This document shows positions 7,692-52,571 of a stretch of DNA of 64,000 nucleotides, one piece after another. This DNA comes from Fusobacterium varium (lineage in GTDB: Bacteria > Fusobacteriota > Fusobacteriia > Fusobacteriales > Fusobacteriaceae). Below the pieces are notes generated by a model. The model was not told where the DNA came from and ran no database searches. It was given only the letters and a program-made list of their open reading frames with translations. The stretch lies in the NCBI GenBank assembly GCA_900637705.1, contig LR134390.1:1984001-2048000 (forward strand), read 5' to 3'. Position 1 is the first letter of the stretch; each line of letters opens with the position of its first letter. The position numbers were made by a program, and so were the translations under genes.

Positions 7692-7973
7692 TTATTCTAT
7701 TACTAATATTTTTGATTGTACAAATTTTATTGTTTTTTTAGGAACTATTTCTCTTATTTCATTTGATGTTGGACTTCCTATTCTTCTCTTTTTTCTTTTT
7801 AAAAGCGAAAATGTTCCCTTATTTTTAAATTTTACTTCTTCATCCATAGCTGTTACTTCTACTATTAGATTAAATATTTCTTCTATCTCTTCCCTTGCTT
7901 CTTCATATTCTATTGTTTCATCTTGTTCTTTTCTCAATTTTTTGTAATATGATACAAATTCCCTAGTGTTCAT
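7692..7973 (-). CDS. divergent HU/IHF-like DNA-binding protein (second of pair)
   Basis: 93 residues. The C-terminal half, 'VKFKNKGTFSLLKRKKR' followed by 'SNEIREIVPKKTIKFVQSK', follows the HU/IHF pattern of a beta-strand ('..F.GFG.F'), a basic arm and a final 'PA.K...FK..K' strand-helix. The N-terminal half is unusually acidic (EEAREEIEEIFN). HU proteins bend DNA as dimers. It overlaps the upstream paralogue by 11 bases, implying coupled translation and perhaps a heterodimer. It ends the polysaccharide transcription unit. Sequence is divergent, so specific function is open. Confidence 0.7.
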   Translation of the reverse strand: MNTREFVSYYKKLRKEQDETIEYEEAREEIEEIFNLIVEVTAMDEEVKFKNKGTFSLLKRKKRRIGSPTSNEIREIVPKKTIKFVQSKILVIE

Positions 7974-8274
7974 ATTCCTCCTCTATGAGAGTATTGAGCT
8001 CATTTACTTTATCTATCATTTTCATTCTAGGTTTAAATTTGATAACTTTCTTTTCTTCTGTTATCATCATTTCTCTAGTAGCTAAATTAAGTATTTTTCT
8101 TGGTTTTACTTCTTTCTTTTCAAATATTCCCCAGTCTTTTATTATTACTTTTTCCTCTTCTTCTAAAACATCAAAAAGAGCTTTCCAGAAAGAATCTAAT
8201 CTTTCTTTTGCTTCTCTTATGCTTTTTAGATTCCTTCTTTCCTTGTATAAGATTAAAAACTCTTTTTCTGTCAT
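7963..8274 (-). CDS. divergent HU/IHF-like DNA-binding protein (first of pair)
   Basis: 103 residues with the same plan as the following gene: an N-terminal helical part (MTEKEFLILYKERRNLKS), then 'VIIKDWGIFEKKEVKPRK' and 'KKVIKFKPRMKM', matching the HU core and the K-rich C-terminal strand. The start is preceded by AGAAAGGA. Only 30 bases separate it from the stop of wzx, with no terminator visible in the gap, so it is probably transcribed as part of the polysaccharide operon. A degraded tandem HU-like pair with the same 'WGVFEKKEVK' stretch occurs at 52124-52571. Confidence 0.72.
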   Translation of the reverse strand: MTEKEFLILYKERRNLKSIREAKERLDSFWKALFDVLEEEEKVIIKDWGIFEKKEVKPRKILNLATREMMITEEKKVIKFKPRMKMIDKVNELNTLIEEEYEH

Positions 8275-49932: not shown

Positions 49933-50241
49933 CTATTTTTTAGTAAGTACCAGCTTTATGTTGTTATCTTTTTTGATGACTTCATAATTAAATACTTCTT
50001 TTTTTTCCAAACCCTTCTTTATATCTTCTATTATATCATCATCTTTAAAAGAAAAATATATTCTGGCTGAATAAAAATTATATTTTTTTAGTGTATTTTC
50101 CAAATATATTATTTCATCAGCTATATAGAATATCTTTTTAGAAAAATCTTTTCTCTTTTCTTCAGGGGTTTTAAAAAATTTTCTTTTTATCCTTTGGAAG
50201 AAGTTCTTAATTTTTTTATTCCTCATCTTCATCATATACAA
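49933..50241 (-). CDS. hypothetical basic protein
   Basis: Up to 102 residues. The N-terminal 30 residues are strongly basic ('MRNKKIKNFFQRIKRKFFK'), then a helix and a beta-alpha-beta-like end ('FNYEVIKKDNNIKLVLTKK'). The start could be any of several Met codons between 50226 and 50241; the longest form overlaps the DUF2589 gene upstream by 26 bases. No recognisable family. Membership of the cluster is inferred from tight spacing. Confidence 0.6.
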   Translation of the reverse strand: MYMMKMRNKKIKNFFQRIKRKFFKTPEEKRKDFSKKIFYIADEIIYLENTLKKYNFYSARIYFSFKDDDIIEDIKKGLEKKEVFNYEVIKKDNNIKLVLTKK

Positions 50242-50842
50242 CTTTTTTATTCTTTTTCTTTAAAGAATTTTTTCTCTTTGGAGCTTCCTCTATTTCTTCT
50301 TCCTCTTCAATATCCTCTTCATTTCCCTCTTCATCAATTAAGGCATACAAAAGAGGTCTATTTCTAAATTCGTCCATTATTCTTTCTATTCCCTCTGGAT
50401 TATCCTGCTCTTCAAACTTTAATTTTATTCCTATATTATTTGAAGTTCTTCCTTTAGTATTATCACTGGTAGGAGCAAGGGTAACTTCAAAACTGGTTCT
50501 ATCAGCATATCTTACTTCATCTTCTTCAGGAATCCCCTCTTTAGTCTTTACTTTTCCCTCATCTATTCTTACATTAAGCTCTATTTCTATTTCTTTAAGT
50601 CTTAATCCTTTAGGTTCTGTCAAAGCCAAAAGAGGAATACTTGCTTTTTTATTATCCTGTACTTTAAAATTATACATTATAGGATTTCCATCTTCATCAA
50701 AGTACTTTCCTATAGATTCAATATAATGATTATTTAATATTTGCTGAGCAGCATTAGCTGAATAAAGAAGTCCTCTTGTTATATCTGAAAGGGATTGGTC
50801 ATTTTGCGACTTTCTAACTTTCCATGGATAACATTTTATCAT
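50216..50842 (-). CDS. DUF2589-like protein with acidic tail
   Basis: 208 residues. 'SLSDITRGLLYSANAAQQILN' opens the protein, followed by beta-rich sequence with 'IPLLALTEPKGLRLKEIEIEL', which parallels the 'PFIAMTGIPNLSMELVTIDF' strand pair of the next gene and supports a DUF2589-type relationship. The C-terminal 40 residues are an acidic, then K-rich tail that is probably disordered. Not exported by sequence. Its neighbour upstream is the clear DUF2589 protein, so the two may form a heteromeric assembly; function unknown. Confidence 0.65.
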   Translation of the reverse strand: MIKCYPWKVRKSQNDQSLSDITRGLLYSANAAQQILNNHYIESIGKYFDEDGNPIMYNFKVQDNKKASIPLLALTEPKGLRLKEIEIELNVRIDEGKVKTKEGIPEEDEVRYADRTSFEVTLAPTSDNTKGRTSNNIGIKLKFEEQDNPEGIERIMDEFRNRPLLYALIDEEGNEEDIEEEEEIEEAPKRKNSLKKKNKKVVYDEDEE

Positions 50843-50895: not shown

Positions 50896-51474
50896 TTAGG
50901 CAGCACTATTTATAATACTTTCTGTATTTCTAGGTGCATTTCCATCTGTTACTTGAGCTGGTTTAGTTACATCATTAGTTATTGCTTCAATTATTCTCAT
51001 CAATGGTTCTGGTGTTTCTTGCTTTCTAGCTTCTACATGGAAAGTATATTTAGATCTTGTATCTGATTTTCTTGTCTGCTCTGATTTATGTGATACACTA
51101 CCACTAAATTTTACTCCAAAACAACCTCCTGAAACACTTGCTCCTACATCAGTAGAACTTGTACTTGTATCTGAAGTAGAAATTTCCATTTCAAAATCTA
51201 TTGTTACTAGTTCCATTGATAAGTTTGGAATCCCAGTCATTGCTATGAATGGTGCAGAAATTGTTTTTTCTACTCTCTCTCCATTTTCAACTGCTGAATA
51301 ATTAAAATTAACATTTTTTACATTTCCATTTTCATCAAGAGCTACCTCTTTGATAAAATTGTACATAGAAGCACTTAATTGTTTTTGTGCATCTACTACT
51401 GCTACTAATGGACTTGCTACTAATGATTCTATTGGTATTGCTTTTAATTGATTTCCTGTAAATGTTTCTGACAT
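50896..51474 (-). CDS. DUF2589 family protein
   Basis: 192 residues. 'IPIESLVASPLVAVVDAQKQ' (about residues 14-33), 'PFIAMTGIPNLSMELVTIDF' and a following Ser/Thr/Gly-rich stretch are the DUF2589 signature. GGAGGAATTA precedes the ATG. It is the first gene after the internal promoter-operator at 51501-51546 and probably the most highly expressed member of the cluster. The biological role of DUF2589 is not established to my knowledge. Confidence 0.85.
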   Translation of the reverse strand: MSETFTGNQLKAIPIESLVASPLVAVVDAQKQLSASMYNFIKEVALDENGNVKNVNFNYSAVENGERVEKTISAPFIAMTGIPNLSMELVTIDFEMEISTSDTSTSSTDVGASVSGGCFGVKFSGSVSHKSEQTRKSDTRSKYTFHVEARKQETPEPLMRIIEAITNDVTKPAQVTDGNAPRNTESIINSAA

Positions 51475-51500: not shown

Positions 51501-51546
51501 TCTCTAGAGATAATTGGATTATATATCTTGATTAGTTTTATACCAA
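51501..51546 (-). promoter_or_regulatory. promoter plus TCTCTAGAGA operator for DUF2589 genes
   Basis: On the minus strand -35 TTGGTA (51541-51546), a 17-base spacer, -10 TATAAT (51518-51523), then 7 bases and the perfect palindrome TCTCTAGAGA (51501-51510) at the expected transcription start. The same arrangement with the same distances occurs upstream of the XRE gene. Confidence 0.8.
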
Positions 51547-51561
51547 ATTTGTAATCTATTA

Positions 51562-51828
51562 TTATTTTTCCCTCTTTTTCTTTGGATTGTATGCCTTAAA
51601 AAATATTTCCATTACTTTTAGAAAATTTATATCTAATATTTGACAAATTTCTACAAGTAGCTTTATATTCATTTCGTTTATACAATTTTCATAACAGCTT
51701 ACTGTTTTTTGTGATATCCCTAATTTTTTAGAAAATTCCTTTTGAGTATATCTCTCTTCCCTAGTTTTTCTTATTTCCTGAACTATTTCCTCATAACATT
51801 CATCATAAATCATTGTCCATTTACTCAT
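51562..51828 (-). CDS. XRE-family helix-turn-helix regulator
   Basis: 88 residues with one HTH_XRE domain: 'YTQKEFSKKLGISQKTVSCYENCINE' (about residues 27-52, shown in part as the recognition region). No extra sensor domain. GGAGGGAA precedes the ATG. The palindrome TCTCTAGAGA at its own promoter and at the DUF2589 promoter makes it the obvious candidate for an autoregulating repressor of the cluster (inference). Confidence 0.88.
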   Translation of the reverse strand: MSKWTMIYDECYEEIVQEIRKTREERYTQKEFSKKLGISQKTVSCYENCINEMNIKLLVEICQILDINFLKVMEIFFKAYNPKKKREK

Positions 51829-51888
51829 ATTCCCTCCAAGATATCTGTGTTTATAAATTCAACATAGAATATCAAATTTTTTAAACTT

Positions 51889-51934
51889 TCTCTAGAGATA
51901 TACGAATTATACAACTCTTTAATATTTATACCAA
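51889..51934 (-). promoter_or_regulatory. promoter plus TCTCTAGAGA operator for XRE regulator
   Basis: On the minus strand -35 TTGGTA (51929-51934), 17-base spacer, -10 TATAAT (51906-51911), 7 bases, then TCTCTAGAGA (51889-51898). The spacing is identical to the DUF2589 promoter. Confidence 0.8.
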
Positions 51935-52123: not shown

Positions 52124-52375
52124 TTATTTCATTATATTTTTTGATACTCTAAATCTTACTGCCTTTCTAGGATAAATTTTCATCAATTCTCTAGTTGATA
52201 GGTTGCTTATCACTTTTGGTTTTCTTTTTGCTGTTTCAAATATACATCTGTTGACAAATGTTACTGAATCATATTTTTACAAGGCTTCCTGTAGAGTTTG
52301 TGAAGTATATCTATTTCTTCTAGTGCTGCCTTTTGTGATACCTTTGTATAGATTTGCTAATTCTTTCTTATTCAT
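52124..52375 (-). pseudogene. degraded HU-like gene (second of pair)
   Basis: From ATG 52373-52375, 'MNKKELANLYK' starts like an HU-like protein; after a stretch that only makes sense in another frame ('KVSQKAALEEIDI'), the main frame resumes with 'LQEAL', a TAA codon, then 'KYDSVTFVNRCIFETAKRKP' and 'PRKAVRFRVSKNIMK', the HU core and C-terminal strand. The in-frame stop and the local frame excursion indicate true decay. The intact relatives are at 7692-8274. Confidence 0.65.
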
Positions 52376-52571
52376 CAGCATCAATTCCATTAACTGCATC
52401 TTGCAAACCTGTTCCTGTTCTAAATCATATCTTTTTCTTTGCTTCAATTATTACTGCTTCTTTCATTTGAGGTGTCACTATTTTTCTTGCTTTTACTTCT
52501 TTTTTCTCAAATACTCCCCAATTATTTAATACTACTTTTCCATAGATAGTATGTATCTTTAGTTCCTCCAT
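52368..52571 (-). pseudogene. degraded HU-like gene (first of pair)
   Basis: The frame from ATG 52569-52571 reads 'MEELKIHTIYGKVVLNNWGV' and 'FEKKEVKARKIVTPQ', nearly identical in pattern to 'IIKDWGIFEKKEVKPRKIL' at 8.1 kb. It lacks the N-terminal helices and is interrupted by TGA after '..IIEAKKKI', with 'FRTGTGLQDAVNG' continuing. It overlaps the following pseudogene by a few bases, as the intact pair does. Confidence 0.6.

What the first reader, a model, noticed from the sequence alone, without database searches (positions are those of the whole stretch)
51501..51934. Twin promoter-operators with identical geometry define an XRE regulon
Both the XRE gene and the first DUF2589 gene have TTGGTA, 17 bases, TATAAT, 7 bases, TCTCTAGAGA. 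Exact repetition of promoter elements, spacing and a 10-bp palindrome at the presumed start site is very unlikely by chance and points to one repressor binding over the start sites of both transcripts.
Basis: seen in the sequence. Interest (0 to 1): 0.7.

Follow-up and report, generated by a model that had tools for sequence, protein, structure and literature searches.

The report
Scattered XRE-type regulon with shared promoters
Two neighbouring genes in a bacterium related to Fusobacterium start from nearly identical promoters with a palindrome over the start point, and the same promoter stands before at least three other small orphan genes in the genome and in sister species, which points to an undescribed co-regulated gene set whose likely but unproven controller is the small XRE protein.

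Summary
On the minus strand, TTGGTA-17-TATAAT-7-TCTCTAGAGA occurs exactly twice, before the XRE gene and before the first DUF2589 gene (0 matches in 100 shuffles). Both copies are intact in the two sister species that carry the locus, while the spacers have diverged.

A genome search finds the same architecture at three more promoters in this genome. Related species add further sites, for 16 in five genomes, with no reversed-pattern controls in the strict family-wide searches. Outside the XRE/DUF2589 locus the sites precede unrelated, mostly 64-148-residue genes.

The claim that the 88-residue XRE is the repressor is plausible but not established. In favour: self-adjacent twin sites, an operator-like palindrome over the presumed start, a HipB-like helix-turn-helix protein, and sites in all three genomes that carry it. 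Against: G025 has two intact promoters and G018 one, with no XRE of this clade. A paralogue behind an HU-like gene pair has almost the same recognition helix. TTGGTA is itself regulon-specific, which a start-site repressor does not explain.

Best reading: an autoregulated, scattered repressor regulon, similar in layout to DdrO.

The parts
51889..51898 (-). Palindrome TCTCTAGAGA (putative operator) of the XRE promoter, about +2 to +11 of the presumed transcript
   Evidence: conserved in G026 and G027
51906..51911 (-). -10 box TATAAT of the XRE promoter
51929..51934 (-). TTGGTA box at -35 of the XRE promoter; regulon-specific hexamer
51562..51828 (-). XRE/HTH_3 protein, 88 aa, putative autoregulated repressor; HipB-like by sequence
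51501..51510 (-). Palindrome TCTCTAGAGA (putative operator) of the DUF2589 operon promoter
   Evidence: conserved in G026 and G027
51518..51523 (-). -10 box TATAAT of the DUF2589 promoter
51541..51546 (-). TTGGTA box at -35 of the DUF2589 promoter
50896..51474 (-). First DUF2589 protein (192 aa)
   Evidence: PF11655, E 1.6e-26
50216..50842 (-). Second DUF2589 protein (208 aa)
   Evidence: PF11655, E 4.1e-18
49933..50241 (-). 102-aa protein with no family match; presumed operon member
   Evidence: conserved in L064 and L065
49372..49923 (-). 183-aa protein with no significant family match; presumed operon member
   Evidence: conserved in L064 and L065
49069..49347 (-). 92-aa protein with no family match; presumed last operon member
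   Evidence: conserved in L064 and L065
52133..52541 (-). Degenerate remnant of an HU-like gene pair just upstream of XRE
   Evidence: tblastn E 2.4e-21 and 1.7e-12, not in one intact frame

Best explanation
The twin sites are two members of one scattered regulon. Each promoter has a TTGGTA box at -35, a TATAAT/TATGAT -10 box and the palindrome TATCTCTAGAGA over the presumed start of transcription. A dimeric helix-turn-helix repressor, most likely the XRE protein encoded between the two sites (or its paralogue behind the HU-like pair, which shares the recognition helix), binds the palindrome. It blocks RNA polymerase at its own promoter, at the DUF2589 operon and at several single small genes elsewhere in the chromosome. 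The unknown inducing signal releases it and switches all of them on together. Shown: the sites, their geometry, their conservation and their genome-wide occurrence at gene starts. Inferred: the start site, XRE binding, repression rather than activation, and the signal.
For: Exact twin arrays, 0 in 100 shuffles. Both are conserved in G026 and G027, with 22/22 element positions invariant against 9/17 spacer positions. Further promoters in the own genome lie at C1:770043, 1791448 and 2064052, each 23-24 bases before a gene. Sites in G025, G026 and G027 also precede short genes, one of them broken by a stop codon. The strict family-wide searches give 6 + 2 matches and no control matches in 61 genomes. 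XRE has HTH_3, E 1.1e-7, and best matches HipB operator-binding structures. XRE sits between two of the sites, and all three genomes with this XRE have the regulon. RNA folding of the leaders is no better than shuffles, which favours a DNA site.
Against: G025 (single contig, about 100% complete) has two exact promoters and G018 has one, yet neither has an XRE of this clade, even with a profile. The paralogue's own operon lacks the palindrome. TTGGTA occurs before TATAAT only in the regulon (8 of 8) in the DNA sampled, so a second regulon-specific contact is needed or the promoters share recent ancestry. Similarity between several copies spans up to about 130 bases, so copying explains part of the conservation. 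No binding or expression data.
Confidence: 0.6

Rival explanations
1. The regulon is real, but its regulator is another factor (an activator or alternative sigma factor recognising TTGGTA, or a different repressor), and XRE is only one of the regulated genes.
For: Sites in G025 and G018 without this XRE. TTGGTA is restricted to the regulon, whereas Fusobacterium nucleatum promoters have a pronounced -10 and a weaker -35 box (PMC11005410).
Against: The -10 boxes look like ordinary sigma-70 boxes. The palindrome is the more operator-like element, and the adjacent XRE is the simplest candidate. G025 may have lost XRE.
Confidence: 0.27
2. The paralogous XRE encoded behind the HU-like pair is the main repressor, and the DUF2589-linked XRE is a competitor or local feedback regulator. 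(This overlaps with the best explanation, which allows either XRE.)
For: 62-67% identity overall, with recognition-helix region SQKTVSCYEN against TQKTVSHYEN. HU-like pairs or a remnant lie beside several regulon loci.
Against: No palindrome at its own operon. Also absent from G025 and G018.
Confidence: 0.25
3. The repeated block is a recently duplicated promoter and leader cassette carried by mobile or copied small genes, conserved by descent more than by a shared regulator.
For: Several copies are alike over 90-130 bases, from upstream of -35 to the Shine-Dalgarno sequence, in front of unrelated genes.
Against: In the XRE, DUF2589, G025 C1:3178639 and G018 copies the spacer and flanks have diverged while TTGGTA, -10 and palindrome are exact.
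Confidence: 0.15
4. The palindrome acts in the RNA: the 5' UCUCU pairs with the Shine-Dalgarno AGGAG and controls translation or stability.
For: Predicted minimum-energy structures of the leaders pair the 5' end with or near the ribosome-binding site.
Against: Energies are no better than shuffles (z from +0.41 to -1.07). The right half of the palindrome has no role in this pairing yet is conserved.
Confidence: 0.07

Closest known systems
DdrO radiation/desiccation response regulon of Deinococcus (PMC8533742)
   Same: A repressor controls a scattered set of about twenty genes (abstract). That DdrO is an XRE-family protein, binds palindromes in those promoters and represses its own gene is from general knowledge.
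   Different: Different operator, no IrrE-type protease partner seen or sought here, and the regulated genes are unrelated.
HipB antitoxin/repressor (operator TATCCN8GGATA, PMC3376134)
   Same: Nearest solved relatives of the XRE profile (E 6e-7). Autoregulation through a palindrome with TATC/GATA-type ends.
   Different: No HipA kinase next to it, and the half-sites are closer together here (TATC-N6-GATA, when the right arm is complete).
sigma-E regulon of Fusobacterium nucleatum (PMC11005410)
   Same: A set of promoters shared across a Fusobacterium genome.
   Different: Controlled by an ECF sigma factor; here the -10 is sigma-70-like and a palindrome lies at the start site.

Membership tests
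XRE / HTH_3 transcription regulators | Cro/C1-type helix-turn-helix domain above the curated cut-off | tested here: met
   HTH_3 32.2 bits against cut-off 23
HipB antitoxins | Score above the NCBIfam HipB cut-off | tested here: not met
   31.8 bits against 79
HipB antitoxins | Adjacent HipA kinase gene | tested here: not met
   Downstream genes are DUF2589 and proteins without a kinase match
Autoregulated repressor regulon | Same operator at the regulator's own promoter and at target promoters | tested here: met
   Sequence level only
Autoregulated repressor regulon | Regulator binds the operator and represses | not testable with these tools
   Needs binding and expression assays
Autoregulated repressor regulon with this XRE as the only regulator | Regulator present wherever the operators are present | tested here: not met
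   G025 and G018 have sites but no XRE of this clade
DUF2589 | PF11655 above cut-off | tested here: met
   94 and 66.6 bits against 23

The most novel reading that the evidence does not exclude
A dedicated promoter type, defined by TTGGTA at -35 plus a start-site palindrome, is spread as a copied cassette in front of otherwise unrelated small orphan genes. A regulator not yet identified, and not the XRE, switches this variable set of small proteins on as one programme.
Probability: 0.15. Interest if true: 0.6.

Novelty: new member of a known kind. Interest (0 to 1): 0.42.

Why it matters
The shared promoter links DUF2589, a domain of unknown function found in only one paper of the library searched, to a set of small uncharacterised genes. 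It gives a ready handle (one operator, one or two candidate repressors) for finding when and why they are expressed. Few regulons are described in this phylum (general knowledge), so a sharply defined one is directly testable.

Tried and rejected
DUF2589 scan of genome contigs, and promoter-pattern scans of genome contigs and viral contigs: nothing returned (near relatives may be left out there). XRE against phages: no match. Pattern with only TATAAT-7-palindrome at 2 mismatches: swamped by background, controls similar. The other exact palindromes here or in congeners lie inside coding sequence and were discarded as chance (L054, L053, L058, L061). Structure of the first DUF2589: no usable model (pLDDT 39.6). 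XRE model: moderate (61.6), and Foldseek gave no significant match, with Cro/C1-type proteins frequent among the weak ones. All-against-all comparison of regulon proteins: no mutual similarity detected. RNA structure of the leaders: not significant.

Full report
What is there. On the minus strand the arrays TTGGTA-17-TATAAT-7-TCTCTAGAGA lie at 51546-51501 and 51934-51889 with no mismatch. They are the only matches in the window at up to three mismatches, and 100 dinucleotide-preserving shuffles give none. The first array ends 26 bases before the first DUF2589 gene. The second ends 60 bases before the 88-residue XRE gene. The bare palindrome is unremarkable in number: about 3 are expected per genome and 4 are found. 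Its placement is the signal: three of the four stand in this promoter geometry.

Conservation. XRE and the DUF2589 pair occur together in only three of 61 genomes of the family (G000, the window's own; G026; G027). In all three, both promoters carry the -35 hexamer, the -10 hexamer and the palindrome unchanged, while only 9 of 17 spacer positions are invariant at each promoter. This is strong phylogenetic footprinting.

The regulon is wider. Searching for TTGGTA and the palindrome at spacing 29 or 30 (up to 2 mismatches) in the genus, and for the longer motif with -10 (up to 3 mismatches) in 61 family genomes, found further sites. In the own genome they are C1:770043 (94-residue gene), C1:1791448 (78 residues) and C1:2064052 (89 residues). 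G026 has 714388 (92 residues) and 991464 (64 residues). G027 has 2640306 (orthologue of the 94-residue gene) and 1813070 (a short reading frame broken by a stop codon). G025 has 106622 (144 residues) and 3178639 (148 residues, C39-like peptidase, PF13529 E 2.9e-11). G018 has one array with no evident gene behind it. With the XRE and DUF2589 promoters of three genomes this makes 16 sites in five genomes. The strict family-wide searches gave no match for the reversed control pattern. The looser searches do have background, so only hits with the full architecture at a gene start (plus the exact G018 array) are counted. Most of the proteins have no family match, and no similarity between them was detected.

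Anatomy. The 14-promoter alignment shows TTTGGTAT, then the -10 box (TATAAT, TATGAT or variants), then 6-7 bases, then TATCTCTAGAGA. If transcription starts 7 bases after the -10 box, the palindrome covers about +1 to +11. That is where a repressor would block initiation. The distance from -10 to palindrome is 7 in the XRE/DUF2589 type and 6 in most single-gene copies. Palindrome variants break one arm or the centre (TCTTTAGAGA, TCCCTAGAGA, TCTCGAGAGA, TCTCTAGAGG), as expected of a tolerant binding site. Predicted leader structures are no more stable than shuffles. In the DNA sampled, TTGGTA lies 16-18 bases before TATAAT eight times, against 0.69 expected. That number equals the TATAAT-type regulon promoters in the sample, so the hexamer looks regulon-specific rather than a general -35 box. 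F. nucleatum promoters are reported to have a pronounced -10 and a weaker -35 (PMC11005410).

Who binds. The XRE protein is a clear HTH_3 member. Its profile finds HipB structures first, and its gene lies between two of the sites, so it is the natural candidate. A paralogue (62-67% identity, nearly the same recognition-helix region) lies behind an HU-like gene pair in the same three genomes and could bind too. Against XRE: G025 and G018 have the promoter but no XRE of this clade, even with an eight-sequence profile. G025 is a single complete contig, so this is probably real absence, whether by loss or because another factor binds. All three genomes with this XRE have sites, against 2 of 58 without (Fisher p 0.0003). 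That figure is confounded by kinship, and two other-genus genomes with a 45-48% homologue (G029, G031) were counted as lacking it.

Copying versus selection. Several single-gene promoters are alike over 90-130 bases, from upstream of the -35 to the ribosome-binding site, although the genes differ. Part of the similarity is therefore recent copying. The XRE, DUF2589, G025 C1:3178639 and G018 copies are diverged nearly everywhere except in the three elements, which argues for selection on those elements.

The target operon. Tandem DUF2589 genes also occur on Vibrio and Deltaproteobacteria plasmids, with muramidase or peptidoglycan-binding genes within a few kilobases and no annotated XRE next to them. 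The operon content therefore looks older than its link to this regulator. Its function stays unknown.

Judgement. That the twin promoters belong to one regulon is close to certain (about 0.9). That the XRE or its paralogue is the repressor acting at the palindrome is my best explanation (about 0.6). The kind of system, an autoregulated XRE regulon, is known (DdrO is the nearest in layout); this instance appears undescribed in the literature searched.

Noticed in passing
window 7692-8274 (-): Intact HU-like gene pair, 91-96% identical to the pair that precedes the XRE paralogue at G000:C1:658511, but with no XRE behind it; it follows a polysaccharide-flippase-like gene.
   Followed up: partly
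window 52133-52541 (-): Decayed HU-like pair immediately upstream of XRE, suggesting the locus once had the HU-HU-XRE order seen at the paralogue.
   Followed up: partly
L132 (G018:C7:148586): Exact TTGGTA-17-TATAAT-7-TCTCTAGAGA promoter followed within about 100 bases by a terminator-like hairpin and no gene: a possible small RNA or the remnant of a lost gene.
   Followed up: no
L064, L065 and L126: In G026 and G027 the XRE-DUF2589 locus abuts a cation-ATPase gene; in the window's genome that gene lies over 20 kb away, with the ethanolamine-utilisation genes in between.
   Followed up: no
L130 (G027:C1:1813070): The gene behind this regulon promoter is interrupted by an in-frame stop codon.
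   Followed up: no
L171 2808-4391 and L170 2607-4244: DUF2589 genes occur as tandem pairs in distant bacteria, with a small roughly 90-residue conserved partner and a muramidase or peptidoglycan-binding gene nearby.
   Followed up: partly
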